Shown here piece after piece: positions 532 to 64,000 of a stretch of 64,000 nt of DNA; position 1 is the first letter of the stretch, and every line of letters begins with the position of its first letter. The translations under genes and the position numbers were made by a program. The stretch is from Algisphaera agarilytica (GTDB lineage Bacteria; Planctomycetota; Phycisphaerae; Phycisphaerales; Phycisphaeraceae): positions 992,001 through 1,056,000 of the forward strand of contig NZ_JACHGY010000001.1 in the NCBI RefSeq assembly GCF_014207595.1. Direction: 5' to 3'. A model generated the notes under the pieces. It did not search any database. It was not told the origin of the DNA and saw nothing but the letters and a program-made list of their open reading frames with translations.

Positions 532-537
532 TAAACT
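532..537 (+). promoter_or_regulatory. -10 box TAAACT for a probably leaderless transcript
   Basis: TAAACT ends 6 nt before the ATG at 544. A start site 6-7 nt after a -10 box would fall on or next to the start codon, and no Shine-Dalgarno sequence is present. No good -35 box is visible. Confidence 0.45.
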
Positions 538-543
538 CTTGGC

Positions 544-1125
544 ATGCTGATGGACCGCCCCGAGATGTTGCAGAGCTTTTTCGAAAAGGCCCTCCCGTAC
601 GAAGCGTTTGTCTCTGGCGGCGAATCGCTGGGCCACCGCACGGCCTGGGACCAGCGGTACGAACAGTGTGCGTTGACTGCCGACCAGCAAGCGATGGTCG
701 CCGGCTTCACCCGGAAGATGCACGTGCTATGTCTTACCGGCACGTGGTGCGGGGACTGCGCCCTGCAGGGCGCGGCCATGCAGCGGGTCGCCGAGGCCAA
801 CCCCGATTGTATCGACCTGCGGTTTGTGCTGCGAGACGAAGAGAACGCGGAGCTGGTGGTGAAGTCACCGATCAACGCGGGATTCCGTGTGCCGGTGACG
901 TGGTGGTTGGCCGAGGACTTCGCGCCCGTGGCGTGTTTCGGCGACCGCACCCTGAGCCGATACCGATCGATGGCGCGCAAGGCGTTCGGCGAGGCGTCCG
1001 GCGTCGTCGCCGAGCCGCCGGAGGACCCGGTGTTGGCGGTGCGTGACGAAGTCGTCGCCGAGTTTGAGCGGGTGCACCTGCTGCTGCGGACGAGTGCTCG
1101 GCTGCGGAAGATCCACAACGATTAA
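544..1125 (+). CDS. Thioredoxin-fold protein with WCGDC active site
   Basis: A 193-residue cytoplasmic protein with no signal peptide. Trp68-Cys69-Gly-Asp-Cys72 is a redox-active CxxC motif, preceded by a hydrophobic strand (VLCLTGTW), and RVPVTWWL further on carries the expected cis-Pro. This matches the Thioredoxin_9/YbbN-like family, small thiol oxidoreductases of mostly unknown substrate. The last 60 residues are helical and specific to this subgroup. The gene stands alone, is followed by a strong hairpin, and faces the next gene convergently. The ATG at 550 is an alternative start. Confidence 0.8.
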   Translation: MLMDRPEMLQSFFEKALPYEAFVSGGESLGHRTAWDQRYEQCALTADQQAMVAGFTRKMHVLCLTGTWCGDCALQGAAMQRVAEANPDCIDLRFVLRDEENAELVVKSPINAGFRVPVTWWLAEDFAPVACFGDRTLSRYRSMARKAFGEASGVVAEPPEDPVLAVRDEVVAEFERVHLLLRTSARLRKIHND

Positions 1126-1129
1126 AACA

Positions 1130-1159
1130 ACACCCGCCGGGGAAACCCACGGCGGGTGT
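1130..1159. terminator. Bidirectional terminator hairpin
   Basis: A 10-bp perfect stem, ACACCCGCCG paired with CGGCGGGTGT, encloses a loop that itself contains GGG-AAA-CCC. It lies between the convergent genes ending at 1125 and 1187. There is no long T tract, so efficiency is uncertain. Confidence 0.6.
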
Positions 1160-1186
1160 GATCGTTGTCTTGCCCCAGAAAGAGAT

Positions 1187-1630
1187 TTAGTCTTCGAGCA
1201 TTTCGAGACGCTTGAGTGCTTCGCGTTTGCCGAGGTTGCGGATCTCGCCCCAAGCCAGGAGTTGCTTCTCGCGCGGGTTGGAATCGCCCTTTTCCCAGTT
1301 GTAGATCGTCAGGCCCGAAACACCGACCAGCTGGCCGTAGTCGGCGGCGCTGATACCGAGTTTTTCGCGGTGTTTCTTGACCCAGCCCGGGCTGAAGCGG
1401 GGACGCTTGGCACCGGACTCCTCGGCCGACGCGGGCTGGCCGAGGCGCTTCTTCTCTTGCTTCTCGACGTAGTTCAGCCGGCGTTCCAGGTCGCTGATCC
1501 GCCTTTTGAGTTCGGCGATTTCGCTGCGGTATTTGGCCACGGTCTTTTGCGTCGCGCCGACTTGGGCACGGATTTCTTTACGGGCCAGACGGCGGATTTC
1601 TTCGCCAAGAACAGTGTTTAGATTCGGCAA
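1187..1630 (-). CDS. HTH (XRE-like) DNA-binding protein with N-terminal coiled coil
   Basis: 147 residues. Residues about 1-65 are a charged helical segment with heptad character (AELKRRISDLERRLNYVEKQ), a likely dimerising coiled coil. A basic linker follows, and residues about 80-140 form an XRE-type helix-turn-helix (ISAADYGQLVGVSGLTIYNWEKGDSNP). The start is TTG at 1630, fixed by a textbook AAGGAGG five bases upstream. Upstream DNA to 1787 is A+T-rich and contains TATAGA, a possible -10. Probably a transcription factor or nucleoid-type protein; the target is unknown. Proteins of this coiled-coil plus XRE layout seem typical of planctomycetes (inference). Confidence 0.75.
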   Translation of the reverse strand: MPNLNTVLGEEIRRLARKEIRAQVGATQKTVAKYRSEIAELKRRISDLERRLNYVEKQEKKRLGQPASAEESGAKRPRFSPGWVKKHREKLGISAADYGQLVGVSGLTIYNWEKGDSNPREKQLLAWGEIRNLGKREALKRLEMLED

Positions 1631-1787
1631 GACTGCCTCCTTCTCAAGGGGAAATTACGTAGAGGGCGAGGCATCGTATCAAAAACTATCTATAACATCG
1701 AATGCTTTATTCAAATATGCATTTTTGGCGACATTGCTATTTCCGCCGGGTTGGCGATCAAAACACCGACCTACCGATAGGAAATAG

Positions 1788-2615
1788 GTGTCTGAAGAGC
1801 AAAACAACTGCGGCATGCGTCCCTGGCAGCGGAAGTTGCACGACGTCATCTTTGAAGCCGAGACCCCCGCAGGCCGGCTATTCGATGTGCTGCTGCTGAT
1901 CGCCATCCTCGCCAGTGTGTTGGCGGTCGTCCTGGAGAGCGTGGAGAGCGTCGACGAGCGGTACCACACCCAGCTCCGCGTGGCGGAATGGTCGTTCACG
2001 ATTGTGTTCACCATCGAGTACGTGCTGCGTTTGATCTGCGTGCAGCGGCCCTGGCGTTACGCCCGCAGCTTCTTCGGGGTGGTGGACCTGCTCGCCATTC
2101 TGCCGAGCTTCCTCAGCCTGCTGATCCCGGGGTCGCACGAGTTGGCGGTGATCCGCGGGCTCCGGTTGCTGCGGGTGTTCAGGATTTTCAAACTCGCGCG
2201 GTACCTCGGAGAGGCCGAGGCTTTAGTCGAAGGGCTCAAAGCCAGCCGGGCCAAGATCACGGTGTTCCTGACGACGGTGTTGATCAGCGTCACGATCATG
2301 GGCGCGCTGATGCACCTGGTCGAGGGGCCGGAGAACGGCTTTGTCGATATCCCGCACGGCATCTACTGGGCGATCGTGACCATGACCACGGTGGGGTTTG
2401 GCGACCTGACCCCGATGACCGGGCCGGGCAAGTTCATCGCGTCGGTGATGATGGTCTTCGGGTACAGCCTGATCATCGTGCCCACGGGCATCATCAGCGC
2501 CGAGATCGCGGTCGGGAAATCACGGCAGAACAACACCGAGGCCTGCCCGCACTGCATGAAGGTCGGCCACGACCGCAAGGCCGAGTACTGCGACCGCTGC
2601 GTCGGTGCGTTGTAG
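1788..2615 (+). CDS. Voltage-gated potassium channel-like ion transport protein
   Basis: A six-helix Kv-type channel of 275 residues. S4 is visible as RGLRLLRVFRIFKLARY with regularly spaced arginines, and the pore has the selectivity filter TMTTVGFGDL near residues 199-208, so K+ selectivity is expected. The protein acts in the inner membrane. After S6 the tail holds two Cys pairs (CPHC and CDRC), a zinc-ribbon-like extension that is unusual for this family. The listed start is GTG at 1788 with a weak ribosome site; ATG at 1815 (MRPWQRK) is a fair alternative and loses only nine residues. Confidence 0.85.
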   Translation: MSEEQNNCGMRPWQRKLHDVIFEAETPAGRLFDVLLLIAILASVLAVVLESVESVDERYHTQLRVAEWSFTIVFTIEYVLRLICVQRPWRYARSFFGVVDLLAILPSFLSLLIPGSHELAVIRGLRLLRVFRIFKLARYLGEAEALVEGLKASRAKITVFLTTVLISVTIMGALMHLVEGPENGFVDIPHGIYWAIVTMTTVGFGDLTPMTGPGKFIASVMMVFGYSLIIVPTGIISAEIAVGKSRQNNTEACPHCMKVGHDRKAEYCDRCVGAL

Positions 2616-2644
2616 AACGCGATTGCTTCACACCGTTAAACCCA

Positions 2645-3097
2645 TCAACCGTCGTCGGGAGCGCGTCGCTGCGACTTGATCTGGCTGCGGTGTTTCTTAG
2701 CGTCGAGGCGGCGCTGCTTCGCGGCGGCGCTGGGGCGGGTGGGCCGGCGGATGCGCGGGCGGTTCATCGCGGCGACGATGAGTTGCCGGAGCTTGAGCAC
2801 GCACGACCGGCGGTTGGCGAGTTGGCTGCGGCTGTCCGAGGCGTGGATGACCAGACGCGGCGGTTTGTCGGCCAGATACCGCCCCGCCGCATCACACAGA
2901 CGGGCAAACGCCCAGGCCGGCATCGCGTTTTCGAGCGCCTCCAGCGGCAGCGTCAGCGTGGCGTGGGTGTTGACCTTGTTGACGTTCTGCCCGCCCGGCC
3001 CGCCGCCACGCGAAAACGTAAACGACATCGCCGACTCGTCGAGCCAAACCCCCGGCGCAATCGGGGCGCGTGAATCATCGTCGGGGATCGTCGGCAT
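2645..3097 (-). CDS. arfB: Peptidyl-tRNA hydrolase ArfB-like (RF-1 domain)
   Basis: 150 residues with the catalytic GGQ at 35-37 (RGGGPGGQNVNKVNTHATL), the domain that hydrolyses peptidyl-tRNA, followed by a lysine/arginine-rich C-terminal tail (RPSAAAKQRRLDAKKHRSQIKSQ) like the ArfB tail that enters the empty mRNA channel of stalled ribosomes. The length and lack of a codon-recognition domain separate it from RF1/RF2. The role is rescue of non-stop ribosomes. ATG at 3097 is chosen because CACAAT lies six bases upstream and further extension would be low-complexity. It is transcribed away from the c-di-GMP gene. Confidence 0.85.
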   Translation of the reverse strand: MPTIPDDDSRAPIAPGVWLDESAMSFTFSRGGGPGGQNVNKVNTHATLTLPLEALENAMPAWAFARLCDAAGRYLADKPPRLVIHASDSRSQLANRRSCVLKLRQLIVAAMNRPRIRRPTRPSAAAKQRRLDAKKHRSQIKSQRRAPDDG

Positions 3098-3135
3098 GGG
3101 CGTATTGTGGCACGGCCCTTTGCCGCCGCAACCCC

Positions 3136-5340
3136 TTAAGCCGAATTCATGTAGCTTCGGGGAGCGCTCAGGAATTCGAGCACTTCCTGCAGCGGCAACG
3201 GCTTGGCGAACAGGTAGCCCTGCAGGCTGTCGCAGTCGAGCGCCTGCAGCACCGCCAACTGTTCCATCGTCTCGATGCCCTCGGCTACGACGGTGAGCCC
3301 CAGCGTGTGGGCGAGCGTCACGATCGCCTGGATCACCGCGGCAAACTCGACGTGGTGGTCGAGGCTGCTCACAAACGAGCGGTCGATCTTCAGCACATCG
3401 ATCGGGAACTGGTGCAGGCACGACAGCGAGGAGTGCCCCGTGCCGAAGTCGTCCATGGCCAGCTTGAAGCCGCGGCGGCGCATCTCTTCGAGCACCACGG
3501 TCACCTGTGCCTGGCCGTCCATAATGACCGACTCGGTGATCTCCAGCTTGATCCACTGCGGATCGACGCCGGCGTTCTCCACGACCTCGACGAGCATGTC
3601 GACGACGTCGGGCTGCACAAGTTGGCGTTTGGAGAGGTTGACGTTCATCGTGAACTCAAACCCGGGCATCGCCTGGCGAATCAGCATGAGTTCACGGCAA
3701 GACTCTTCGAGCACCCACCGGCCCAGCGGCACGATGAGCCCGGTTTCCTCGGCTACGTGGATGAAGTGATCAGGGCGGACCACGCCCATCTCGGGGTGCT
3801 TCCAGCGGACCAGGGCCTCGAACCCCACGACATCGCCCTCGGCGACGGTCACGATGGGCTGGTAGGCCATGAAGATCTGTTCGGTGCCGATGGCTTGACG
3901 CAGTTCGCGTTCGAGGACCAGGCGTTTGAGCGATTGGTCCTGCATGTCCTTGTCGAAGATGGCGTAGCGCGCCTTGCCCAGCGACTTGGCGTGATACATC
4001 GCCGAGTCGGCGTCGCAGATGGCGGCGTCGGGGTCTTCGTAACCCATGCCGCCGTCGATGATGCCGATGCTCGCGGTCGAGGTGACTTCGTTGCCGTCGA
4101 TGTTGAACGGCTCGGCGAAGACCTCCAGCAGGCGGTCGGCGATGCGTTTGACCTGATCGAAATCCTCGACCTCTTCGAGGAGGATGATGAACTCGTCCCC
4201 GCCGATCCGGGCGGCGGTGTCGGTCGAACGGACCTGCCCGCGCAAGCGGTCGGCGATCTGGATGAGCAGTTGGTCGCCCGCGTCGTGGCCGAGGCTGTCG
4301 TTGATGACCTTGAACCGGTCGAAGTCCAGGAACATCATCGCGTAGTGGCGGCGTCCGCCGGTGAGCTTGTGACGACGGATGGCCTGGGCCAGCCGGGTGT
4401 GCAGCGTGGCGCGGTTGGGCAGGCCCGTGAGTTTGTCGGTCTCCGCGGCGTGGCGGAGTTTGGCCTCGGCGGCCTTGAATTCGGTGGTGTCGCTGATCGA
4501 CCCGACCATGCGGATCGGCTCGCCGGCTTCGTCACGCACGAGCTCTGCACGGCACAGGACCCAACGCTTCTCGCCGGTGATGGTCGTGAGGCGGTGCTGG
4601 TTCCGCAGCGAATCGGTCTGCCCGGCCATGAACATCGCCAGATCCGCTTCGAGCTGCGCCAGGTCGCTCGACTCGACGTAGTTGAACCAGTCGTCGGGCT
4701 TGTGGACGACTTCGTCGTCGCCGTAACCCACGATCTGTTTCCACCGCTCGGAATACTCGACTTCGTTGGAGCGCAGGTCCCATTCGAAGACCCCTTCGCT
4801 CAGCCCCCGAACCATCGCGCGGTGACGCTGCTCGGCCAAATCGCTCGCACGTCGGACCTCGGCGCGGCGCACCCATTCCCCGCTGATCCACCGCGCACAC
4901 GCCGCCACCAGTTCGATCTGGTTCGGCGTCACGGGCAGTTGGCGGGCCTGGCTCCAGTAGAGCACGATCACGCCCAACGGCTTGCCGGCCTCATCCATCA
5001 GCGGCCGTGCCAGACGTTGATCATCCTCGTACACCCCGCCGTCTTTCACCGCGGGGTGCCAGAAGTCGCGGAGGCATTCGGATTCTTCGGGGCCCGGCGA
5101 CGAGAGCGAGATACGCTCCCCACGGCGTTCGGCCGCGGCGATGACCCGGCCGTCTCCGGCACCGGTATCCAACACATACACCCGGTCGGCTCCAAGCTCC
5201 TTGCAGCACAGCGACATCATCGAGCCGATCGCTTCGCCGAAGGGCTTGTCGGCCACAAAAGACGTAGCCCGCAGGATACGCGTGACTTGCGCCTCTGCGG
5301 CTGCGTGCTGTTTGGTTGGTTCTTGTTGCTCAGTGCCCAT
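3136..5340 (-). CDS. GAF-PAS-GGDEF-EAL cyclic-di-GMP signalling protein
   Basis: About 734 residues, no transmembrane segment. The order is a GAF domain (about 15-155), a PAS/PAC domain (about 180-290), a GGDEF domain with intact RIGGDEF near residue 380, and an EAL domain with FEALVRW near 508 and the metal/catalytic motifs NLSKRQL, ITES, DDFGTGHSSL, KIDRSFV and EGIET. Both the diguanylate cyclase and phosphodiesterase sites look intact, so it may make and degrade c-di-GMP under control of a cytoplasmic signal. I chose ATG at 5340 (MGTEQQ), which follows GAGAG; ATG at 5382 adds 14 unlikely residues. Confidence 0.92.
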   Translation of the reverse strand: MGTEQQEPTKQHAAAEAQVTRILRATSFVADKPFGEAIGSMMSLCCKELGADRVYVLDTGAGDGRVIAAAERRGERISLSSPGPEESECLRDFWHPAVKDGGVYEDDQRLARPLMDEAGKPLGVIVLYWSQARQLPVTPNQIELVAACARWISGEWVRRAEVRRASDLAEQRHRAMVRGLSEGVFEWDLRSNEVEYSERWKQIVGYGDDEVVHKPDDWFNYVESSDLAQLEADLAMFMAGQTDSLRNQHRLTTITGEKRWVLCRAELVRDEAGEPIRMVGSISDTTEFKAAEAKLRHAAETDKLTGLPNRATLHTRLAQAIRRHKLTGGRRHYAMMFLDFDRFKVINDSLGHDAGDQLLIQIADRLRGQVRSTDTAARIGGDEFIILLEEVEDFDQVKRIADRLLEVFAEPFNIDGNEVTSTASIGIIDGGMGYEDPDAAICDADSAMYHAKSLGKARYAIFDKDMQDQSLKRLVLERELRQAIGTEQIFMAYQPIVTVAEGDVVGFEALVRWKHPEMGVVRPDHFIHVAEETGLIVPLGRWVLEESCRELMLIRQAMPGFEFTMNVNLSKRQLVQPDVVDMLVEVVENAGVDPQWIKLEITESVIMDGQAQVTVVLEEMRRRGFKLAMDDFGTGHSSLSCLHQFPIDVLKIDRSFVSSLDHHVEFAAVIQAIVTLAHTLGLTVVAEGIETMEQLAVLQALDCDSLQGYLFAKPLPLQEVLEFLSAPRSYMNSA

Positions 5341-5440
5341 CTTTTTCTCTCGAAGTGTCTCCAATGAAACACCCCCCCACATCTAACATCTTCGGGTTTA
5401 TCCTCGGATTGCTTAAGGTCAACATGTATAAAGTAGATAG

Positions 5441-5464
5441 GTCCCGACTATGATTTATCGGGAC
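5441..5464. promoter_or_regulatory. Inverted repeat GTCCCGA/TCGGGAC between divergent genes
   Basis: GTCCCGA and TCGGGAC, separated by 10 A+T-rich bases, lie between the starts at 5340 (minus) and 5513 (plus). It could be an operator or a 5' leader hairpin of the WG-repeat gene. Confidence 0.4.
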
Positions 5465-5512
5465 GTCTGCGATTCGCCCCTTGCTTCTGCGCATCACCCC
5501 GGGAAAGCGATC

Positions 5513-6997
5513 ATGCAAGCCACTGCCCAACGTATTGATGAACGGAGCGGAGCGCCTTCCAAGACGCTTTTTATCTGGACTTGCTTGGTTTGGAGCGGGA
5601 TCGTGGTCGCCTTGGCCTCGCCTGCCCAAGCTCAAATACACATCCCCGATCCGCGGACGCCCCTGTTTGGCGAAGTGCAAAACCCCGATGCTCTGAAGTT
5701 TGCGAACGCCGGGACCGGCGACGATCTGATCCCGCTGGAGATCAATGGCTACTGGGGCATCTTGAATCAGAACCGCCGGGTGGTGGCGTTGCCGGTGTTC
5801 GACTGGACCGATTACGGCGTCGACGGTTTGGTAAGGGCCACCCGCAACGGCAAGACCGGGATGCTCATCGGCAACGGCAAATGGCGTTTCGATCCCGAGT
5901 ACGCCTACCTGGATCGTTTCGAAGAGGGCTTCGCGGTGTTCGGCAACGGAGAGAAGTACGGCTTCATCGACAAAGCCGAGAAGGTCCGCGTCGGCCCCGA
6001 GTTCGACGCGGCGCTGCGCTTCCGCGAGGGCTGGGCGGCGGTCCGCAAGGGCAACCGTTGCGGCTTCATCAACAAGACGTTTCGCCCCGCGACCGACATG
6101 CGGTTTACCGCGGTGCGTTCGTTCCACGAAGGCTACGCCGCGGTACGCTTGCCGATCAGCGGCGCCGCGCAAACCTCGGTTTCGGGAGCGACTCCCTCGC
6201 CGACGAACGAGCAAGAAGGCGACGCCACTCTGGCCACCCCAACACCATCCACTTCCGATGAACCGTTGCCGGGCACGTGGGGGTTCTTGAACAAGAACGG
6301 CAAGGTCGTCTACCACGACAGCTCCGGCCAGATCGAAATGCTGGGCGACTTCAACAACGGGCTGGCCCGCTTCCGCTCGGGCGGGTTGTGGGGCTACATG
6401 GACAAGAAGTTCCAGGTCGTCCTCCCGCCCACCTACGAAGGTGCGCGCGACTTCACCAACGGCAGCGCCGCGGTCAAGCTCGGCGGCAAGTGGGGCTACA
6501 TCAATCGCCGATTCAACGTGACGATCCCGTTCCTCTACGACCTAGCGGATGACTTCGACAGCACGCTGGCGATGGTGACGCTGGGCGGGAAGAAGGGATA
6601 CATCGGCCGGACCGGTCGCGTGGAGATCGAGCCCCAGTTCGACTGGGCCGAGCCGTTTCGTCTGGGTCTGGCACGCGTGGGGGTGGGCGACAGCTACGGC
6701 TACATCCGTACCTCGGGGTATGTGTTCTACGACCCGCGTGTTGGTCAACAGGGAATTATTGACATTACCCCGCGTGAGCAATTTCGGGCCAGCATTAGCA
6801 CCTGGAAACGTTTCAATCGCCGGTTGATGCCGCCCGCCAAGCGCCCGGCCAAACCCTCGCCTTACGCCCCGGAATATCAGTACGACGAGGGGCTGTGGGT
6901 CGGCTCGCCCCCCGAAGATATCGAGCCGAAGAAGCCGAACCCCCCGAAAGAAACCGCCCCGGGCGAAACGAACCCGGAGGATGTTGAACGCGTATGA
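5513..6997 (+). CDS. Secreted WG-repeat protein
   Basis: 494 residues. The N-terminus has a signal-peptide hydrophobic core (TLFIWTCLVWSGIVVALASPAQA) ending in an Ala-x-Ala cleavage site. The body is made of WG/KWG repeats, each near 45-50 residues, of the form YWGxxNQxxxVVxxPxFDxxxxFxxGxAxV, with at least eight units and a Ser/Thr/Pro-rich insertion in the middle. The end is Pro/Glu/Lys-rich. WG repeats form beta structures of unknown function and may bind ligands outside the cytoplasm. ATG at 5513 is chosen for its GGGAAAG ribosome site. The next gene follows 45 bases later. Confidence 0.8.
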   Translation: MQATAQRIDERSGAPSKTLFIWTCLVWSGIVVALASPAQAQIHIPDPRTPLFGEVQNPDALKFANAGTGDDLIPLEINGYWGILNQNRRVVALPVFDWTDYGVDGLVRATRNGKTGMLIGNGKWRFDPEYAYLDRFEEGFAVFGNGEKYGFIDKAEKVRVGPEFDAALRFREGWAAVRKGNRCGFINKTFRPATDMRFTAVRSFHEGYAAVRLPISGAAQTSVSGATPSPTNEQEGDATLATPTPSTSDEPLPGTWGFLNKNGKVVYHDSSGQIEMLGDFNNGLARFRSGGLWGYMDKKFQVVLPPTYEGARDFTNGSAAVKLGGKWGYINRRFNVTIPFLYDLADDFDSTLAMVTLGGKKGYIGRTGRVEIEPQFDWAEPFRLGLARVGVGDSYGYIRTSGYVFYDPRVGQQGIIDITPREQFRASISTWKRFNRRLMPPAKRPAKPSPYAPEYQYDEGLWVGSPPEDIEPKKPNPPKETAPGETNPEDVERV

Positions 6998-55864: not shown

Positions 55865-57488
55865 CCTCTTTCATCCCCCCCAAACCGGGGCCGCGCTGAT
55901 CGTGGTCGCCTGCGGGCTCGTTGGCTGCGCCGACCCGTTCCGCCACGATCCAGTGACGCAAGAGGCCTACCGCGCGAAGCTGCAAAATATCGAGCCGGTC
56001 ACGCTCGAGACGTTCACCGCGACCGAGCCCGCCCCGCCGATGCCCGAAGCCCCCGCCGAACTGGAGCTGACGCTCGAGCAATGCCGGGCCTGGGTCTTGG
56101 CCGACAGCCTCGACCTCGATGTTCGATTGCTCGATCCGACTCTCGCGGATCTCTCGGTCACCGCCGCCGAGGCGCGGTTCGAGGCGGTGCTGTTCGGCTC
56201 CGCCAACTACAGCGACACCGAAACCCCGACCGCCTCGACCCTCGACGGCAGCGAGGTGCAAAGCTCTCGCGGCCAACTCGGCGTCCGTCTGCCGCTGCGT
56301 ACCGGCGGAACCCTGACCGCCGACTTCGTCGCGCAGCGCCTCGACACCGACAACACGTTCTCGACGCTCAATCCGTCGTTCGACGGCGACGCCAACATCT
56401 CGCTGTCCCAACCGCTGCTCCGTAACGCAGGCCAACGCGTCACCGAAGCCCCGATCCAGATCGCCCGGCTCGACGCTCAAGCCGTCTCCGCTCGAACCCG
56501 CGTTGATGTGATCCGCGTGCTGACCGCAATCGATCGAGCCTACTGGCAACTGTACCAAGCGCAGCAGGAACTCACCGTCCGGCAGCAGCAACATGAACTC
56601 GCCATCGCCCAACTCGAACGCGCCGAGCGTCTGGTCGAGGCCGGCGCCGCCGCGGACGTTGAGGTCATCCGCGCCCAGGCCGGGGTCGCCGACGGACTGG
56701 AGGCGATTATCACCGCCGAGAATACGCTCCGCCTCACCCAACGCTCGATCAAACGCCTGATCAACCAGCCCCATCTACCGCTCAACGGCCCGACCGCTTT
56801 GGTCGCCGTCACGCCTGCCAACCCCGTGAACTACGCCCTCGACGGCGATCGGCTGCTCGACACCGCGATGGATCAGCGCGTCGAACTTATCGAAACCGAG
56901 CTCCAACTTGCCCAAGACGCTTTGAATATCGATATCCGCCGCAACGCAACACTGCCCCTGGCCTCGCTCGACTACCGCTATACCCGCAACGGCCTAGGCG
57001 GCTCGTTCAACGACGCGTTCAGCCAGGTCTTCGAGGAAGACTTCGACGGCCACAGCATTGGACTGCGGGTTGAGGTACCACTTGGAAACCAAGCCGCCAA
57101 GTCAGAACTTCAGCGTGCCCTACTCACGCGCGTGCAACGGCTCTCGAACCGTCGGCTGCAAGAAGTTCAGATCGCCCAAGAAATCGCGAACGCCTTAGAT
57201 ACCCTCACCACGACGTGGCAGCGCATCCTGGCCACCCGGCAAGCCGTGTTGCTGGAAGCACGCGTGCTAGAGGCCGAACAGCGCCAGTTCGAGTTGGGGC
57301 TGGTCACCTCGACGCAAGTATTGGAAGCCCAAGCTCGACTGGCTGACGCTCGATCCCGAGAGGTGAGCGCCATTACCGCTTACCAGATCGCCCAAATCGA
57401 CCTCGCATTTGCCACCGGCACCGTTCTCGGCGAAGCCCGCATCCGCTGGGAACCGCTCGGCTTAGACTCGGAAAGCCAGAAGCGATAG
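55857..57488 (+). CDS. TolC-family outer-membrane efflux lipoprotein
   Basis: 543 residues. The signal ends in a lipobox (LVVACGLVGC, Cys24), and two long helical repeats with beta-strand segments follow (LTLEQCRAWVLADSLDLDVRLLD ... and its counterpart after AVTPANPVNYALDGDRLLDTAMDQRVELIETELQL). The pattern matches OEP/TolC channels. It overlaps the permease gene by eight bases and completes a four-gene adaptor-ATPase-permease-channel operon. Confidence 0.9.
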   Translation: MSNLFHPPQTGAALIVVACGLVGCADPFRHDPVTQEAYRAKLQNIEPVTLETFTATEPAPPMPEAPAELELTLEQCRAWVLADSLDLDVRLLDPTLADLSVTAAEARFEAVLFGSANYSDTETPTASTLDGSEVQSSRGQLGVRLPLRTGGTLTADFVAQRLDTDNTFSTLNPSFDGDANISLSQPLLRNAGQRVTEAPIQIARLDAQAVSARTRVDVIRVLTAIDRAYWQLYQAQQELTVRQQQHELAIAQLERAERLVEAGAAADVEVIRAQAGVADGLEAIITAENTLRLTQRSIKRLINQPHLPLNGPTALVAVTPANPVNYALDGDRLLDTAMDQRVELIETELQLAQDALNIDIRRNATLPLASLDYRYTRNGLGGSFNDAFSQVFEEDFDGHSIGLRVEVPLGNQAAKSELQRALLTRVQRLSNRRLQEVQIAQEIANALDTLTTTWQRILATRQAVLLEARVLEAEQRQFELGLVTSTQVLEAQARLADARSREVSAITAYQIAQIDLAFATGTVLGEARIRWEPLGLDSESQKR

Positions 57489-57558
57489 CTACGAATCGCA
57501 ACCCAATGTCACCAAACGTTTCTTTGGCTACATACGGCCGTGTGTGCCAACCGATTGC

Positions 57559-59271
57559 CTAGGGGGCTACCTCGAGGCCGAGAAACTGGGCTTGTTTGCC
57601 CCAGTTCAACGTCTGCGCGGCCTCGAGCAGATTGGTCAGCGTGATCCGAACAGGCAATTCCCCACTTAGAGCCTGCTTCAGGATCGTGGGAGATAGTTGA
57701 ACCAAGGGTAGGTACTTCCGGATCCGGCTCGCCGAGACGTTCTGCTGCTTCGCGAGTCTCGGCAGGTTGACACCGCTTTCCATGAATAACTCACGCCAGC
57801 GATAGGCTTGCCCAATCGCGGAAACAATGTGGCTTTGAGGCGTTGGGGTTCCGGGCGCTACGAGGTCTTGTCCGTCTGGTGAGACCAACATTCGCTTTCC
57901 GTCGAGCCGCTTGATCTGCAACGCGATACGCAGCCGGACCTTCTTCCGGTAGTTATCCACCCGCGGCTGATAGAGGCAGCGAGGACAAGGCGCAGCCTCT
58001 GCGTTAGGCGTATGGGGCCATTCAACCTCCCGCACCGCCTCAAGCTGATCCGGCAATAGTTTGACGGTCAGTTCATCCGGTGCCAGTACGATTCGGTGAA
58101 TAAGACGCCTAATCCAGTAGTCACGCGTGCCAACATCGGATCGAAGCAGCGGATCTCTGACGTCCTCATCCAGGTAATTCAACACCAACGCGCGGACCAG
58201 CTCGTCGAGGTAGCTCGCATTGATCGTCTTGATGGGGCAATTCTTATACCCCTGCTGAATCCCTTTCTGGCTGACGTAGTACCGAACCAGACGCTTCTGG
58301 CCCCCGGAAGTGGCTGCCGCCCTATTGGAGATCGGCCGGTGGACCGAGCTGGGGCTCATTGCGTAACTTTCGTGTGTTCGAAGTTTGCCCTTCAGTAGGT
58401 GAGGTTGGCTCCAGCGATGCTGCGACTGGCGGATCACCGAGTCGATCTCCCCTTGCACCTGGTCCCACAACTTCCGGGACACGATGGGTTCGTGTTGGCC
58501 CTTCCAGTCTTTGTCCTTATGCACGATCCGGCCGATGTACAGCGGATTGGTCAGCATGTCGCGAAGGTACTTGGCCGTCAAGGGCTTCCCGCCGTGCTCT
58601 CTCCCCCTGCTGCTCACCCAGTACCTTGTGGTGTAGCCTTCACTGTTGAGCTTCTCCGCCAACGCCAACATGGAACCGTCCGCCTCCAAGAACCCCCGGA
58701 AGGTTTTTTCCACCAGTTCCGCTTCCGGGGGATGGATGTATAGCTTCCGCTCTTTCAGGCGGTAGCCGAGAGGAGGCTGGCCACCAACCCACAGCCCCTT
58801 CTTCTTGGTGGCGGCGATCTTGTCGCGTATCCGTTCACCGGTGACCTCACGCTCGAACTGGGCGAAACTCAGCAACATGTTTAAGGTCAGACGACCCATG
58901 CTGGTCGTGGTATTGAACTGCTGGGTCACAGACACGAACGAGACGTCGCGGTCCTCGAAGACCTTCATCATGGCGGCGAAGTCGCTCAAGGAGCGAGATA
59001 GTCGGTCTACTTTGTAGACCACCACCACATCGACAAGGCCGTAATCGATATCTTTGAGCAGTTGCTTGAGCCCGGGGCGTTCCATGTTCCCGCCGGTGAA
59101 GCCGCCGTCGTCGTAAGCCGTCTCGATCGCTACCCAGCCCTCGTGTATCTGGCTACGGATGTAGTCGAGACCTGCTTCACGCTGAGCGTCAAGTGAATTG
59201 AAGGCTTGATCGAGGCCTTCCTCATGGGATTTACGCGTGTACACCGCGCATCGAATCAGTTTGGAACTCAT
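57559..59271 (-). CDS. Large serine recombinase (resolvase/invertase N-terminal domain)
   Basis: 570 residues. The catalytic serine is Ser15 in AVYTRKSHEEGLDQAFNSL, and DVVVVYKVDRLSRSL plus the E-helix FERE-VTGERIRDKI give a complete resolvase domain. A recombinase domain (LGYRLKERKLYIHPPEAELVEKTF...) and a modified zinc-ribbon region follow, in which the usual CxxC is replaced by LRTHESYAM while a later CPRC appears. It should integrate and excise the element by attP/attB recombination. GAGGGGG before the ATG sets the start, which overlaps the DUF2924 stop codon. Confidence 0.92.
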   Translation of the reverse strand: MSSKLIRCAVYTRKSHEEGLDQAFNSLDAQREAGLDYIRSQIHEGWVAIETAYDDGGFTGGNMERPGLKQLLKDIDYGLVDVVVVYKVDRLSRSLSDFAAMMKVFEDRDVSFVSVTQQFNTTTSMGRLTLNMLLSFAQFEREVTGERIRDKIAATKKKGLWVGGQPPLGYRLKERKLYIHPPEAELVEKTFRGFLEADGSMLALAEKLNSEGYTTRYWVSSRGREHGGKPLTAKYLRDMLTNPLYIGRIVHKDKDWKGQHEPIVSRKLWDQVQGEIDSVIRQSQHRWSQPHLLKGKLRTHESYAMSPSSVHRPISNRAAATSGGQKRLVRYYVSQKGIQQGYKNCPIKTINASYLDELVRALVLNYLDEDVRDPLLRSDVGTRDYWIRRLIHRIVLAPDELTVKLLPDQLEAVREVEWPHTPNAEAAPCPRCLYQPRVDNYRKKVRLRIALQIKRLDGKRMLVSPDGQDLVAPGTPTPQSHIVSAIGQAYRWRELFMESGVNLPRLAKQQNVSASRIRKYLPLVQLSPTILKQALSGELPVRITLTNLLEAAQTLNWGKQAQFLGLEVAP

Positions 59272-59738
59272 TGGATCCCCCTCACTCGGTTGAGGCCGAA
59301 GAAACGCGGACCGGACCAATGGGCCCGGGTGATCTCCTTAGCGATCTGGGTGAGGCTGCGGTACTCCTGGCCCCGGAACTCGAATCGCTTGCCGGGTTCG
59401 ACCACCACCACTTCGTAGGTCTTACCCTGCCAATTCCGAATGAGCTTAGCCCCAGCCTGAAGTACCGGCTTGGACGGTGTTCGGATCTTCCGAGGTTTCC
59501 GGGAATTGACGCTTTGGGGAGGTGCTTGGACACCTCGAATCGCAGACTTCAGCATGGTTTGAGTAGCGGCGTCGATACCTCCACCTTGGGCTTGCCAAGC
59601 AAGGTCACGGCGAAGCAGAAGCTTGACCTTAGGGGGAGGCTTACCACGGTTCGTTTGCTGCCAGCTCTGCGATAGTTCGGGTAATGATAGACCCTTGAGA
59701 TCATTCAGAGATCGTGGAGTGTTCATACCCACATACAT
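59268..59738 (-). CDS. DUF2924 protein, partner of the recombinase
   Basis: 156 residues. The C-terminal half, GAKLIRNWQGKTYEVVVVEPGKRFEFRGQEYRSLTQIAKEITRAHWSGPRFFGLNR, is DUF2924, a domain that very often sits directly upstream of large serine recombinases in bacterial islands. A role as recombination directionality factor or accessory DNA-binding protein is plausible but unproven. The stop codon overlaps the recombinase start by four bases, so translation is coupled. ATG at 59726 is an alternative start. Confidence 0.87.
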   Translation of the reverse strand: MYVGMNTPRSLNDLKGLSLPELSQSWQQTNRGKPPPKVKLLLRRDLAWQAQGGGIDAATQTMLKSAIRGVQAPPQSVNSRKPRKIRTPSKPVLQAGAKLIRNWQGKTYEVVVVEPGKRFEFRGQEYRSLTQIAKEITRAHWSGPRFFGLNRVRGIQ

Positions 59739-59800
59739 CCATATCTACCGGCAGATATCAAGGCATGATCGATAGGATCATCCCTGTGTTCTGGCACTAT

Positions 59801-60949
59801 CTATGGACGCTTCGGGGTGCTTCCGTGGATCACTTCCGGGGGGGTGAAGTGGGATAGGATGCCTTCGACGAGGGCGTGATCATGGAGCTTGCAGACCGTC
59901 TGGCGTCGGGCCTTGAGCCTCAGGGCTTCCTCACGGGGCACCACCGCAACCCAATTGACACCGATACACCAATCGCAGCGGTCCGGATCGTGGAGGTGCT
60001 CTTTCATGGGTGCCTTCTCGAGCGGCAACTCCAATAGACGCTTACTTTTAACCGGCGAGACGAAGTCACGCTGCATCACCGCTTCAGAGACCACCTCACC
60101 TACCCCCACATAACCGTGGCGGCTGAGGTAAGCCATGATCTTGTCGCCCGGCTGCAAGCGGCTAATCTGCCGGATCCATTTGGGACCCCCGCCTGCCTGC
60201 ATGAACCCGTATCGCTGACAGTCTTCCCAGCAGCGACTATTGGTCGGTGATTCGCCGACATTCACGAACCAGTAACCCTCGCCGTCTATCCAGCCACCGC
60301 CTCGAGTGGCCCGGCGTACCCCTCGCGACTTGTCTTTGGCCCGGACCAAGAAGTCTCCTGCTTCAGGTAGCGGGATGATGCGTTGGACGTCGAGGATTAG
60401 TTCGTCTCCCTGGCGATGCGGCCGGATCCTCACACAAGTGATATCTAAGTCACGCTGATTGAGCCAGATGACGGACGTTGTGACCTCCTTGTGGAAGTCG
60501 GGTGCCACCAGAACGATGCGGACCTCCTGGCCGAAGAACTCCTCCTGAGGCCCGTCCCAGTCGAGGAAATCCAGCAAAACCTGCTCAGCTTCAGTCGACG
60601 TGGATCCGGAGTACTTGGCATAAGCAGCAACCGCCTGATCAAAGGTCATCGTCGAGGCCATGGCGGCGTATCGGATCGCCTGCAGGTCCAATTGTCCGTC
60701 GTTGGTGGTGCGTTTCAGTTCGATCACCACCAACCGGGCCTCGGTATCCAGGGCTAGCAAGTCGATGCGACGACGGCTGTCGTCCCAGTCAGCAAACTCG
60801 TCGGTCAACACCAAGGCATCGGGAAGCAGGACGTCGATCTGCTCCCGAAGCAGTCGCTGGAGGTCGTAGCGTTCGGAGACGCCCTCCTGAGCAAAATTGG
60901 TGACGGGAAGCGTGGTGAGTTGATCGGAATCGAGGCGGAATAAGGGCAT
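59801..60949 (-). CDS. PD-(D/E)XK nuclease fused to an EVE/PUA-like domain
   Basis: 382 residues, no signal peptide. Residues 1-about 140 form a NucS/DUF91-like nuclease with Asp63 in RRIDLLALD, Glu77-Leu-Lys79 in VVIELKR and a following LDLQAIRYAAM helix. Residues about 225-330 (GEGYWFVNVGESPTNSRCWEDCQRYGFMQAGGG ... LQPGDKIMAYLSRHGYVGVGEV) look like an EVE/PUA-type module that binds modified bases. The combination suggests a modification-dependent restriction enzyme protecting the island host from phage. It is divergent from the small XRE gene and separated from it by a shared palindrome. Confidence 0.75.
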   Translation of the reverse strand: MPLFRLDSDQLTTLPVTNFAQEGVSERYDLQRLLREQIDVLLPDALVLTDEFADWDDSRRRIDLLALDTEARLVVIELKRTTNDGQLDLQAIRYAAMASTMTFDQAVAAYAKYSGSTSTEAEQVLLDFLDWDGPQEEFFGQEVRIVLVAPDFHKEVTTSVIWLNQRDLDITCVRIRPHRQGDELILDVQRIIPLPEAGDFLVRAKDKSRGVRRATRGGGWIDGEGYWFVNVGESPTNSRCWEDCQRYGFMQAGGGPKWIRQISRLQPGDKIMAYLSRHGYVGVGEVVSEAVMQRDFVSPVKSKRLLELPLEKAPMKEHLHDPDRCDWCIGVNWVAVVPREEALRLKARRQTVCKLHDHALVEGILSHFTPPEVIHGSTPKRP

Positions 60950-61039
60950 ATCGAATTCTCCGGAGCCGTCGAACTACCGTGCTGGGGAACACCCCCAACT
61001 GTTTGAACACGAGGAAGCTGCGGCATGGACCATATTGCC

Positions 61040-61058
61040 TGACAACAAAGAGTTGTCA
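61040..61058. promoter_or_regulatory. Inverted repeat TGACAAC-N5-GTTGTCA over divergent promoters
   Basis: The palindrome covers a minus-strand TTGACA (-35), which is followed after about 16-17 bases by CAATAT/AATATG, a likely promoter for the nuclease gene. On the plus strand it lies in the spacer between TTGCCT and AATAGC. It is probably the operator of the XRE protein at 61085. Confidence 0.6.
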
Positions 61059-61084
61059 ATAGCAATCCACACGATCCTGTTGGG

Positions 61085-61315
61085 GTGCCCAAGCCGCAAA
61101 TACGACCCGATTACGCCCCCCTACCCGAGCTCCTACGTGAGATGCGCGACCGCGCGGGGCTAACCCAACGTGACTTGGCCGAACGCCTGGGGATGCCGCA
61201 AAACACGATCTACCGTATGGAGCAAGGGATTCGCCGATGTGACGTCCTGGAGTTGATCGACTGGTGCCGGGCATGCGACTACAACCCGAAACGGGCCTTC
61301 AACAAGTTGCTGTAA
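61085..61315 (+). CDS. Small XRE-family regulator
   Basis: 76 residues from a GTG start: almost all is a helix-turn-helix domain (LLREMRDRAGLTQRDLAERLGMPQNTIYRMEQGIRRCDVLELIDWCRACDYNP). The size and position opposite a nuclease recall the C (controller) proteins of restriction-modification systems or a phage Cro-like repressor. TGACAAC-GTTGTCA upstream is the obvious binding site. The stop lies 12 bases from the terminase stop on the other strand. Confidence 0.82.
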   Translation: MPKPQIRPDYAPLPELLREMRDRAGLTQRDLAERLGMPQNTIYRMEQGIRRCDVLELIDWCRACDYNPKRAFNKLL

Positions 61316-61327
61316 CTGCCCAGCGAC

Positions 61328-63046
61328 TCAGAACTGCGACACACTCGTATAGCTCTTAGAAGTCTGCGCTATCCGAACCGCCATTTCCAAAGCGTCGGGA
61401 CCATCGTCATGGGCCCCCAGTGGGAAGTGGCGCAATTGCTCGAGGAGCATCTGCTGGCGACGGGAGAACCTTAACTGCCCCTGCGCAATCAGCGGTTCTA
61501 AACTTGAAATCCTTACGCCTTTATTCTGAGTATTCTCGACTTTCTTGACTCGCAATGATCGGCCACCAACTCGCGTCCGATTGATGATCTGATCAACCAA
61601 CAAACCCTTATGCAGATTGGTTTCCATTGCGAAGTCTCGATACGTATACGTCCGGCTCAGCCGCGCGATGTGTTCAACCAGTTGGTCAGGGCTACGTCGA
61701 GCGATGTCCGCTCCAATCACATACATCACCTTCGTCGATGAATCCCGAACCAGCGTGATCACCGCAGAGTAATCGCCTTTGCGGCCCCGCTGCCCCAAGC
61801 TCGGGTCGCACGCCCCATAGAACTGCGCCCGTGAACCCAACTTCCGTATCAATTCCGCTTCACCCCCCGCAGTCAGCCCCCCGGAAGTCGCGTTCGAGTT
61901 TCCGGGGGTGGTTACGGAGATAATTCCGGGGGCGGGGGTGTCCCAGAAGCGGAGGTTTTCTTCTTTGAAGAGGCATTCTTCCGGGTCCAGGGGCTCATTC
62001 TGCTTCTCGGATTGGAAGCTGGTCCTTCCTTCGTCCGCCCGGATCTGCATTAATCGTTCGTAACTCTCGACTTCAGGCCACAACACTTTGGTCCCTGTAA
62101 GCATGTCTTCTTCGTTGGCCTTGAAGAAGGCGTTGCTTGCCCCCGGCCCCGACTTATCCTCGAAGTCGTCTTCACCAAACCGGATCGCCTCCCACTGATC
62201 CCAGAGGTCATGCCGTTCACTGAACTTCTCCACAGCTCGGTAGACCTTTCCGTCCCAACCTCCGGCCTTGCCCCTTTGGGGTGTCTCACGTGTCAGGTTG
62301 GCCAACAGCGAGTCGTAGTGCAGGATCGTTCCGATCACCACCACGTTGGTCTGCGGATCACCGGCCTTCAAGAGCGTCTTCTGGAACCAGTCCATGGCCT
62401 TACGCCTCTGATCATCCGACAGCGTTGGCTCTAGCTCCTCCAGGTCGTCCGCAATGATCAGACTCGGCCGGTGCTGCCGGTGCTTCATGCCACGCAGCCC
62501 CTGCCCCGCACCCAAGACCCGCACGCAAGTGTCGTTGGGAAGCACCAAATGATGCGCCCTCACCTTCACCGCCCCGCCCCCGGAAAGTTCCGAGAGGCTT
62601 CCGGGGGTGTTAGTTGATGGCTTTGCCTGCCGGCCCTGGATCAAGGGGATACAGATCTCCGGAAAGTCTTGGATCAGACGAGTGTTGCCTCGCAATTCCC
62701 GAGTCAGGTCCTGCAGCAACTGCTTTGCCTGCTCACTTGTCGCCGAGATGATCAGGATGAATGCTTCTTTCCGGTACAGCAAGCACCACAACACATAGGC
62801 CAAACTCACGACCGTCGTCTTGGCGTGGCCTCTAGGAGCCGCAATAGCAACCCGGCTCCCACGCTTGTCTACAAGTACTTTCAACTTCCGGAAAAGAGAC
62901 GCGTGCATACGTGAACCCTTGGCGCGGAGGTGATGCTCTAGGTACACCGCCGCGAATACACTGGGCGATTCACCGCCACGCTCGCGTCGGCGGAGCGATA
63001 ACGCTCGGAGCAGCCCTCGATGATGGTCTAGTTCGACGCTGCTCAT
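61328..63046 (-). CDS. terL: Phage terminase large subunit
   Basis: 572 residues. The packaging ATPase has Walker A AAPRGHAKTT (about 70-78) and Walker B SLIIADDLEE (about 195-203); the RNase-H-like nuclease has YGACDPSLG (Asp414) and HDDGPDALE near 552. It cleaves and pumps phage DNA into the prohead. Two short Gly/Ser/Thr/Pro-rich stretches (about 144-159 and 377-395) look like insertions and are encoded by inverted CCCCCGGAA repeats. Its start overlaps the stop of the upstream gene. Confidence 0.9.
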   Translation of the reverse strand: MSSVELDHHRGLLRALSLRRRERGGESPSVFAAVYLEHHLRAKGSRMHASLFRKLKVLVDKRGSRVAIAAPRGHAKTTVVSLAYVLWCLLYRKEAFILIISATSEQAKQLLQDLTRELRGNTRLIQDFPEICIPLIQGRQAKPSTNTPGSLSELSGGGAVKVRAHHLVLPNDTCVRVLGAGQGLRGMKHRQHRPSLIIADDLEELEPTLSDDQRRKAMDWFQKTLLKAGDPQTNVVVIGTILHYDSLLANLTRETPQRGKAGGWDGKVYRAVEKFSERHDLWDQWEAIRFGEDDFEDKSGPGASNAFFKANEEDMLTGTKVLWPEVESYERLMQIRADEGRTSFQSEKQNEPLDPEECLFKEENLRFWDTPAPGIISVTTPGNSNATSGGLTAGGEAELIRKLGSRAQFYGACDPSLGQRGRKGDYSAVITLVRDSSTKVMYVIGADIARRSPDQLVEHIARLSRTYTYRDFAMETNLHKGLLVDQIINRTRVGGRSLRVKKVENTQNKGVRISSLEPLIAQGQLRFSRRQQMLLEQLRHFPLGAHDDGPDALEMAVRIAQTSKSYTSVSQF

Positions 63047-63708
63047 TTAGCTACCTTTCCGGTAGCAGGCGGAGTGGGCAAGGACTGAACCGAACCAACC
63101 CCCTTCGAAGCCTCCCCGTAACGCCTTTCCTGCATTCCATTCGGTAGCTCAATGCAGCCCACCCGCTTCGCTTCGGCATAGATTTCCTGCAAAGTCAACG
63201 GGTCTTCGAGACGATGGCTCAGCGTCGCCTCGATCTGCTGAGCCGATGAAGGCAGAAAACCCATGATTTGAAGCCGGTGAGCCGTCTTGTCCAGGATCTC
63301 CATAGCCGCCCGCTCGCCGTCGATCCGAACTGCTGGGGGTGTGGACTTGTCCCGCGTCGCCCGACGGATGTGTTCAACACCTACTCGTGCCTGATGCAAC
63401 AGTTCACCCGCGACCTCGCCGGCCAGCTCGGGATCATTCTTCAAAGCCCTGCCTTCAAGGATGGCCTTGCGGTCGCGGGCGATGGTCCGCTCACTGCACG
63501 TCAGTAAGGCGGCCATCTCGGGGACCGACACGCCCTCGCCGCCAAGATGGGCAACGCAGGCTCGGCGTTCTTCTACTGCCAGGTCTTTGGGATTTAAACG
63601 CTTCTGCTTGAGATCACGTAGAAGATCAAGCACGTTCCTGGGATCGGAAATATCTGAGGGTTCACTCTGGGCTTCTAGAGTGGTTTGTTCAAGGGGTTCG
63701 TTGGTCAT
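63043..63708 (-). CDS. terS: Probable terminase small subunit
   Basis: 221 residues. A helix-turn-helix in the first half (LGGEGVSVPEMAALLTCSERTIARDRKAILEG) is followed by a helical region (LAGEVAGELLHQARVGVEHIRRATRD) and a C-terminus with IYAEAKRVGCIELPNGMQERRYGEASKG. The four-base overlap with the large subunit and the HTH support a TerS role in recognising the packaging site. Sequence similarity to a named TerS family cannot be judged here. Confidence 0.7.
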   Translation of the reverse strand: MTNEPLEQTTLEAQSEPSDISDPRNVLDLLRDLKQKRLNPKDLAVEERRACVAHLGGEGVSVPEMAALLTCSERTIARDRKAILEGRALKNDPELAGEVAGELLHQARVGVEHIRRATRDKSTPPAVRIDGERAAMEILDKTAHRLQIMGFLPSSAQQIEATLSHRLEDPLTLQEIYAEAKRVGCIELPNGMQERRYGEASKGVGSVQSLPTPPATGKVAK

Positions 63709-63786
63709 GGTGATGTGCTCACTGATGATGGATGTGTTTTAGAAATTCAGGTCTTAGTTGAATGAGTGATTAGTGCAATATGGCCA

Positions 63787-64000
63787 CTAAGCAGCAGAGG
63801 AACCCTGAGTCCACGAATAGGCCTGCGCAACTTCCGGGGGCACGGCTTGAGGGCCGGCCAAAGCGATGTAGCGGCGAACGATGGTGTCGCAGTCACGCGG
63901 ATCGATCTCCATCCCCAGGCAACGACGCCCCAAAGCCGCCGCGGCCAGCAGCGTGGTCCCGCTGCCCAGGAAGGGGTCGAAGACAATCTCGCCTCGTTTC
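63787..64000 (-). CDS. DNA methyltransferase, C-terminal end (5' part beyond window)
   Basis: The open frame enters from the right edge and ends at 63787. It begins KRGEIVFDPFLGSGTTLLAAAALGRR, the DPFxGSGTT S-adenosylmethionine motif of N4/N6 amino-methyltransferases in which this motif is C-terminal, and then GMEIDPRDCDTIVRRYIALAG. It modifies adenine or cytosine in DNA. It is the upstream neighbour of the terminase genes on the same strand, in keeping with phage or island methyltransferases. Confidence 0.85.
   Translation of the reverse strand, partial: KRGEIVFDPFLGSGTTLLAAAALGRRCLGMEIDPRDCDTIVRRYIALAGPQAVPPEVAQAYSWTQGSSAA

What the first reader, a model, noticed from the sequence alone, without database searches (positions are those of the whole stretch)
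59801..61315. Candidate defence unit: modification-sensing nuclease controlled by a C-protein-like regulator
A PD-(D/E)XK nuclease with an EVE/PUA-like reader domain faces a 76-residue XRE protein across TGACAAC-N5-GTTGTCA, which overlaps the nuclease -35. Known: C proteins delay restriction enzymes so that a new host is methylated first, and EVE/PUA domains read modified bases. Together they suggest a delayed, modification-dependent restriction system carried on a mobile island, with its nuclease turned on divergently. I have not seen this pairing described.
Basis: partly seen in the sequence, partly recalled or inferred. Interest (0 to 1): 0.8.

Follow-up and report, generated by a model that had tools for sequence, protein, structure and literature searches.

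The report
Mobile DNA-cutter with neighbouring switch
A small mobile element in a probable planctomycete bacterium carries an enzyme predicted to cut chemically modified virus DNA, next to a tiny gene switch that very probably controls itself, and perhaps the enzyme, through a shared DNA site; the enzyme type was already predicted, but the switch and its setting add something new.

Summary
The gene at 59801-60949 encodes a NucS-like PD-(D/E)XK nuclease fused to an EVE (PUA-superfamily) reader (fold search) and matches PADLOC's defence candidate PDC-S11. EVE-PD(D/E)XK enzymes were already predicted to be type IV restriction enzymes (PMC7641849).

The palindrome TGACAAC-N5-GTTGTCA alone is barely beyond chance. 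Comparison makes it convincing: 16 of 44 XRE-family genes (window included) have a perfect 7-pair palindrome upstream, 1.3 expected, and operator sequence follows the recognition helix. It is very probably the XRE protein's own operator.

The XRE-nuclease pair is rare: one clear further case (L134) among 19 other EVE nucleases. The steadier setting is a small element (recombinase, DUF2924, terminase, ParB-methyltransferase, no capsid genes seen); the nuclease sits at its terminase in 5 genomes.

C-protein membership and delayed switch-on are not supported: one operator, not two; divergent genes; closer non-C relatives among solved structures. Autorepression that also limits the nuclease is likelier, but unproven. 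New variant of a known kind.

The parts
59801..60949 (-). EVE-PD-(D/E)XK nuclease, 382 aa: NucS-like nuclease domain about residues 21-186, EVE reader about 220-373
   Evidence: (PDC-S11 2.1e-115)
61085..61315 (+). 76-aa XRE (Cro/C1-type) regulator, recognition helix around PQNTIYRME (helix placed by eye from the alignment)
   Evidence: (HTH_31 2.1e-13)
61040..61058 (.). Palindrome TGACAAC-N5-GTTGTCA, probable XRE operator in the shared divergent gap
61054..61059 (-). TTGACA hexamer, possible -35 of the nuclease promoter, overlapping the right arm
   Evidence: not found by the stricter scan
59268..59738 (-). DUF2924 protein, 156 aa, element core
   Evidence: (5.2e-32)
57559..59319 (-). Large serine recombinase, 586 aa, element core
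61328..63046 (-). Terminase large subunit, 572 aa
   Evidence: (1.8e-98)
63043..63708 (-). 221-aa HTH protein at the small-terminase position (name inferred from position)
63787..64000 (-). C-terminal part of ParB-like / N6-N4 DNA methyltransferase; the gene runs to about 65082 outside the window (L002 13787-15082)

Best explanation
A single-gene nuclease of predicted type IV kind (NucS-like PD-(D/E)XK domain cutting, EVE domain reading a modified base) is cargo of a small serine-recombinase element that also carries a terminase and a ParB-methyltransferase. The XRE protein beside it belongs to a scattered family of small (roughly 75-100 residues) self-regulating proteins. It binds the one palindrome in the 135-bp divergent gap, limits its own synthesis and, because that gap is also the only upstream region of the nuclease, most likely limits the nuclease too. 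In a newly entered cell without XRE the nuclease would be made at once and then turned down. Shown by computation: domains, folds, gene order, operator-helix relation. Inferred: DNA binding, direction of control, modified-DNA target, phage defence.
For: Folds: NucS Z 11.6, VcaM4I EVE Z 10.5. Invariant catalytic residues in 14 of 14 sequences. PDC-S11 at 2.1e-115. Defence neighbours of relatives, ten proteins of six loci chosen by eye: HsdM, PrrC and a RhuM-type PDC-S05 (L139), type IIG enzyme (L140), AbiEi (L138), PDC-S26 (L023). Operator: 7 of 21 upstream regions, window included, have TGACA-N9-TGTCA with 0-1 mismatch. General test: 16 of 44 with perfect palindromes, 1.34 expected, 40 of 366 in control ORFs; 23 of 44 centred at -52..-32, 10 expected; Mantel r 0.39, 0 of 5,000 permutations. 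L134: a 37-nt block, 31 of 37 identical, once just before the XRE gene and once before a possible lipoprotein-nuclease unit; the best of 100 shuffles is 25.
Against: The pair is not conserved: 1 clear case among 19 other non-redundant EVE nucleases. Element L347 has the same gene order without XRE. XRE homologues mostly look like orphans: 0 of 19 loci examined (of 48 other places found) have nuclease, terminase, DUF2924 or recombinase matches within about 1.5 kb. No good sigma-70-like promoter in the gap. Taken singly most XRE homologues' palindromes are not significant (median p 0.36), 17 of 44 have none of 6 or more pairs near -60..-28, and the operator-helix correlation may partly reflect shared descent. 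pTM 0.51: domain arrangement unsure. I saw no experiment on this nuclease.
Confidence: 0.55

Rival explanations
1. One reading: XRE is a C-protein-like activator that builds up slowly and turns the nuclease on late.
For: Small HTH protein and a palindrome upstream of its own gene; C.AhdI is a distant relative (7.1e-4); PADLOC Control_protein 6.5e-4. Some homologues show two sites (L035, L033, L303, read by eye). The element carries a methyltransferase.
Against: One operator here; the next-best site has 4 of 10 mismatches, whereas mutating the left operator of C.Csp231I abolished activation (PMC4824078, passages). Divergent gene. Closer non-C relatives among solved structures. No cognate methylation needed for a type IV enzyme (reasoning).
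Confidence: 0.2
2. XRE only regulates itself; its position beside the nuclease is accidental, an orphan regulator that landed in the gap of the element.
For: Family members mostly look like orphans; L347 has the same element without XRE and a similar nuclease-terminase gap (356 bp against 378 bp); rare pairing.
Against: The single operator lies in the only upstream region of the nuclease, about 90 bp from its start codon; L134 shows an operator-like repeat before a second nuclease unit, with a chance of such a neighbour of about 0.006-0.02 (rough Poisson).
Confidence: 0.2
3. The nuclease and the element's ParB-methyltransferase form an ordinary restriction-modification pair, the methyltransferase protecting DNA from the nuclease.
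For: Both lie in the same element in 5 genomes.
Against: ParB-methyltransferase occurs in elements without the nuclease (L112, L114); 13 of 15 EVE-nuclease loci have no ParB-methyltransferase match in their flanks (two of these 13, L139 and L140, have other methyltransferases); an EVE reader suggests recognition, not avoidance, of modification.
Confidence: 0.05

Closest known systems
EVE-PD(D/E)XK putative type IV restriction enzymes (Bell, Wolf, Koonin 2020, PMC7641849; abstract, section 9 and passages read)
   Same: Same two kinds of domain joined, predicted modification-dependent restriction; the figure legend allows EVE in either position in some classes.
   Different: Section 9 names no XRE regulator; NucS and DUF91 do not occur in the main text. 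The paper does mention, elsewhere, an XRE-type HTH fused to an ASCH domain in (PIN)-GNAT-EVE operons.
VcaM4I, EVE-HNH modification-dependent endonuclease (PMC7897488, passages)
   Same: EVE reader fold, Z 10.5 to 6yex.
   Different: HNH nuclease in place of NucS-like PD-(D/E)XK; EVE at the N terminus.
PADLOC PDC-S11
   Same: Nearly whole-length match, 2.1e-115.
   Different: A computational candidate. Two papers were found (passages): one reports it in 10 P. aeruginosa strains, 90% of them in the phage-resistant group, the other co-occurrence in S. suis; neither passage tests it.
EndoMS/NucS
   Same: Nuclease domain fold, Z 11.6; NucS_C matched by 13 of 14 aligned members, best 1e-6.
   Different: Nuclease domain is N-terminal here, with EVE fused behind it.
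C proteins of restriction-modification systems (C.AhdI, C.Csp231I; PMC4824078 and PMC12707154, passages)
   Same: Small HTH autoregulator with palindromic operator next to a nuclease gene.
   Different: Single operator, divergent nuclease, no demonstrated cognate methyltransferase.
RptR (PMC12255303, abstract and outline)
   Same: Small dedicated regulator of a defence island binding a short palindrome.
   Different: Associated with type I systems; minimal site TAGCTA in three direct repeats.

Membership tests
Type IV (modification-dependent) EVE-PD(D/E)XK restriction enzyme | PD-(D/E)XK nuclease core | tested here: met
   Invariant D63, E77, K79, Q90 in A4; NucS fold Z 11.6
Type IV (modification-dependent) EVE-PD(D/E)XK restriction enzyme | EVE/PUA reader domain | tested here: met
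   Fold: PH1033 Z 11.0, VcaM4I EVE Z 10.5, PSPTO5229 Z 9.5. Sequence alone is weak: Pfam EVE E 0.15, 2 of 14 relatives matched, best 0.0029
Type IV (modification-dependent) EVE-PD(D/E)XK restriction enzyme | Cleaves modified but not unmodified DNA | not testable with these tools
   Needs an assay
Type IV (modification-dependent) EVE-PD(D/E)XK restriction enzyme | Works without a cognate methyltransferase | tested here: inconclusive
   Element has a ParB-methyltransferase; 13 of 15 EVE loci have no such match nearby, two of them have other methyltransferases
PADLOC PDC-S11 | Match to the family profile | tested here: met
C proteins | Small Cro/C1-type HTH protein | tested here: met
C proteins | Closest relatives are C proteins | tested here: not met
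   Among solved structures 3f6w 1.3e-12 and 3eus 6.9e-11 against C.AhdI 7.1e-4; in PADLOC other HTH models score better than Control_protein
C proteins | Two operators (OL, OR) upstream of its own gene | tested here: not met
   Only one; next site 4 of 10 mismatches
C proteins | Acts with a cognate restriction-modification pair | tested here: inconclusive
   No demonstrated pair; a ParB-methyltransferase is nearby
Prophage / phage satellite | Integrase or recombinase and packaging gene | tested here: met
Prophage / phage satellite | Capsid, portal or tail genes (complete prophage) | tested here: not met
   None recognised among the element's genes or among the genes tested in and beside related elements; genes of unknown function cannot be excluded
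Prophage / phage satellite | Mobilised by a helper phage | not testable with these tools
   -

The most novel reading that the evidence does not exclude
The element is one of a family of about 7-kb, capsid-less, terminase-bearing mobile elements that move defence genes in an exchangeable slot, and the XRE-operator unit is a portable switch that, in two lineages, has captured an EVE nuclease so that the nuclease is made in a burst on entry into a new cell and then shut down.
Probability: 0.25. Interest if true: 0.65.

Novelty: new variant of a known kind. Interest (0 to 1): 0.42.

Why it matters
To my knowledge (recalled, not searched in full) little is known of how type IV nucleases are controlled or moved. 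If the XRE-operator unit controls the nuclease, it would be a transcriptional control of an EVE type IV enzyme, testable with one shift assay and one reporter. The helix-operator table gives a natural set for working out the DNA code of this regulator family.

Tried and rejected
Palindrome as evidence by itself: rejected, chance 3.5-10%. Regulon search: the palindrome occurs only here in the host genome at up to 1 mismatch; the backwards control pattern gave as many matches. Attachment sites: no convincing direct repeats at the ends of six elements, the longest being 11 bases in the host's own, so the ends are not defined. XRE in viral contigs: three weak partial matches only. Single-protein scans for the nuclease in viral contigs and genome contigs confirmed none; the alignment query succeeded. 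Rfam at gathering scores on 57000-64000: no match. PDB by sequence with the EVE part alone: no relevant match. Restriction-modification pairing with the ParB-methyltransferase: considered and ranked low. DUF4268 as the other C-terminal domain: named in plasmid annotation, but two nuclease-only relatives (L155, L157) had no Pfam match.

Dropped rows and choices: 2 of 46 XRE homologues were left out (L321 low score, L312 short upstream). The TGACA-N9-TGTCA motif was chosen after seeing L031; one search is the motif-free test. Control ORFs are mechanical ORFs. The 111 nuclease ORFs without an EVE match still include duplicates and fragments. Flanks ranged from about 1.5 kb to 5 kb, some cut by contig ends. 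The rough density used a mean genome size judged by eye.

Full report
What is there. The nuclease gene (59801-60949, minus) and the XRE gene (61085-61315, plus) face away from each other across 135 bp that hold one perfect palindrome, TGACAAC-AAAGA-GTTGTCA, at 61040-61058. On the minus strand its right arm contains TTGACA (61059-61054), but the possible -10 boxes are poor and a stricter promoter scan found none. The claim that it overlaps the nuclease -35 is therefore possible, not shown.

The nuclease. Pfam sees it only weakly (MmcB-like 0.014, NucS_C 0.11, EVE 0.15), but among its 14 aligned family members NucS_C matches 13 (best 1e-6) and EVE 2 (best 0.0029). PADLOC's defence candidate PDC-S11 matches residues 1-368 at 2.1e-115. 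Among the 14 aligned full-length sequences, window included, D63, E77, K79 and Q90 are invariant. An AlphaFold model from them has mean pLDDT 80.9 and pTM 0.51, so the domains are trusted more than their arrangement. Residues 21-186 match EndoMS/NucS (Z 11.6 and 11.5), and residues 220-373 match EVE and YTH domains: PH1033 Z 11.0, the EVE domain of the type IV enzyme VcaM4I Z 10.5, YTHDC2 Z 9.9. EVE-PD(D/E)XK proteins were already listed as putative type IV restriction enzymes (PMC7641849, section 9), and the EVE domain of VcaM4I flips out and binds modified cytosine (PMC7897488, passages).

Distribution and neighbours. Relatives at E up to 0.001 occur in 17 of 101 near genomes, own included; at E up to 1e-30 in 18 of 392 of the phylum sample and 18 of 397 of the class sample, own included; in 361 of 72,556 plasmid records, 40 of them with at least 80% of the query in one place; and in 1 of 50,697 phage records, over 54% of the query. 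An alignment query gave 361 genome loci, of which 80 were kept, and 2 viral loci. Two contigs of near relatives (G016:C32, G010:C73) agree in length with contigs titled Phycisphaeraceae (L184, L180), so the host is probably of that family. Of 140 loci scanned (duplicates included), 23 ORFs joined both domains and 111 had the nuclease domain without an EVE match. After removing duplicates 19 EVE-type relatives remain. Ten neighbours from six of these loci (L136, L138, L139, L140, L023, L024), chosen by eye, gave HsdM, PrrC, a PDC-S05 RhuM protein and a PLD protein (L139), a type IIG enzyme (L140), AbiEi and a weakly matched PLD protein (L138), PDC-S26 (L023), an HNH protein (L024) and a helicase (L136). 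This supports a defence role. One paper reports PDC-S11 in 10 P. aeruginosa strains, 90% of them phage-resistant (PMC10855318, passage), a correlation only.

The element. In the window the order is recombinase, DUF2924, nuclease, XRE, large terminase, HTH protein, ParB-methyltransferase; the next gene tested is a LuxR-like regulator. No capsid, portal or tail gene was recognised. A DUF2924-recombinase pair is also known from Phage WO of Wolbachia (PMC10299305, passages). The nuclease lies at the large terminase in four further genomes: G016 (L106), G095 (L107), L135 and G689 (L347); in the window XRE lies between the two. L347 has the same order and strands, without XRE, and a shortened terminase. 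Related terminase elements without the nuclease exist in G060 (L112) and G009 (L114). Of 106 viral terminase relatives, 80 were kept; none of the 80 loci has a nuclease or DUF2924 match, one has the recombinase, five a ParB-methyltransferase match. PHROGs on 10 genes in or beside the elements of L106, L107, L112 and L114, and on 10 proteins of L347, L002, L135 and L109, gave no capsid, portal or tail hit; large-terminase matches appeared where expected, plus one weak one in L109 (8.4e-5). Several matches are to families of unknown function, so this is not proof. No attachment repeats were found, so the ends are not known and decay of a prophage is not excluded.

The palindrome and the XRE protein. 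Alone the palindrome could be chance: 3.5-6.1% of 5,000 shuffles of the gap and 10.1% of random 135-mers of the window. It is the only match in the host genome at up to one mismatch, but the backwards control pattern is as frequent. XRE homologues occur in 31 of 101 near genomes and at E up to 1e-6 in 41 of 392 phylum genomes, own included. Upstream of 7 of 21 of these genes (window included) lies TGACA-N9-TGTCA with at most one mismatch, 6 of the 7 at -45 or -42; L028 and L029 are near-identical. A motif-free test on 44 of 46 homologues found 16 with a perfect 7-pair palindrome, 1.34 expected from shuffles (binomial 1e-13) and 40 of 366 in control ORFs of the same loci (Fisher 4e-5); 23 of 44 best centres fall in -52..-32, 10 expected. 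In the 27 homologues with at least 6 of 7 pairs centred at -60..-28, operator likeness follows recognition-helix likeness (Mantel r 0.39, 0 of 5,000 permutations). The other 17 show no such palindrome, and singly most are not significant (median p 0.36). Examples: PQNT helices (window, L028, L029) go with TGACMAC..GTTGTCA, PQSW helices (L031, L032) with TGACAC or TGATAC..GTGTCA, and PHSW/HHSW helices (L038, L319) with GCTCC..GGAGC. Shared descent may add to this correlation. The palindrome is therefore very probably a true operator of the XRE protein.

Does XRE control the nuclease? Evidence is moderate. For it: the only operator lies in the only upstream region of the nuclease, about 90 bp from its start. 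In L134 an XRE relative (93.8 bits) lies 1 kb upstream of an EVE nuclease, and a 37-nt block is found twice, once just before the XRE gene and once before a possible lipoprotein gene (by eye; no Pfam match) followed by the nuclease, 31 of 37 identical; the best of 100 shuffles is 25. That these blocks are that protein's operators is inferred from place and repetition; they are imperfect palindromes. Against it: 1 of 19 other EVE nucleases has such a neighbour, and among the 111 other nuclease ORFs only one weak hit was seen (L201, 17.8 bits). XRE homologues mostly look like orphans: none of 19 loci examined, of 48 other places found, has a nuclease, terminase, DUF2924 or recombinase match within about 1.5 kb, nor do the four ORFs on either side in 9 wider loci.

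Direction of control. C.Csp231I uses two CTAAG-n5-CTTAG operators, and mutating the left one abolished activation (PMC4824078, passages). Here a second site is missing: the next best has 4 of 10 mismatches. With a single operator over the possible promoter, repression is the simplest reading. A type IV enzyme also has no cognate methylation to wait for. I therefore prefer autorepression that limits the nuclease (0.55), then C-like delay (0.2), then no control (0.2).

Novelty. The nuclease is a new member of a predicted kind; the XRE-operator pairing and the terminase element setting make it a new variant. In the listings, abstracts and passages seen (searches; open-licence PMC only) I saw no description of an XRE-controlled EVE nuclease. 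The nearest mention is an XRE-type HTH fused to an ASCH domain in (PIN)-GNAT-EVE operons (PMC7641849, passage). This is not proof of absence.

Noticed in passing
L106 6892-6909; L107 11515-11574; L135 4848-4902; L347 7823-7841: A GC-rich hairpin (CGCCCCC-N4-GGGGGCG type) recurs in the cargo slot of four nuclease-bearing elements but not in the window element; a looser match lies in L112. Role unknown (regulatory, packaging or cargo-exchange site).
   Followed up: partly
L347 8061-9257 and L109 9126-10226: The large terminase of two related elements matches only part of phrog_38 (270-518 and 262-526 of 760), without the C-terminal part that the window protein also matches (to 711); repurposing or decay.
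   Followed up: no
window 57559-64000, continuing to about 65082 (L002 13787-15082): A recurrent compact element without recognised capsid genes (ParB-methyltransferase, terminase genes, cargo slot, DUF2924, serine recombinase) in several genera; a possible satellite-like element.
   Followed up: partly
L107 15867-18998; L108 1151-5970: In G095 the stretch between the nuclease-terminase end and the DUF2924-recombinase end holds a weak Piwi-domain match (23.9 bits, under Pfam's cut-off), an SNF2-type helicase and an Eco57I-type methylase.
   Followed up: no
111 of 134 ORFs with the nuclease domain (duplicates and fragments included): The same NucS-like domain is found more often without an EVE match than with one, suggesting exchange of C-terminal reader domains.
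   Followed up: partly
L213 (viral contig) 1-6083: An EVE nuclease lies beside genes that look by eye like phage head genes (not tested).
   Followed up: no
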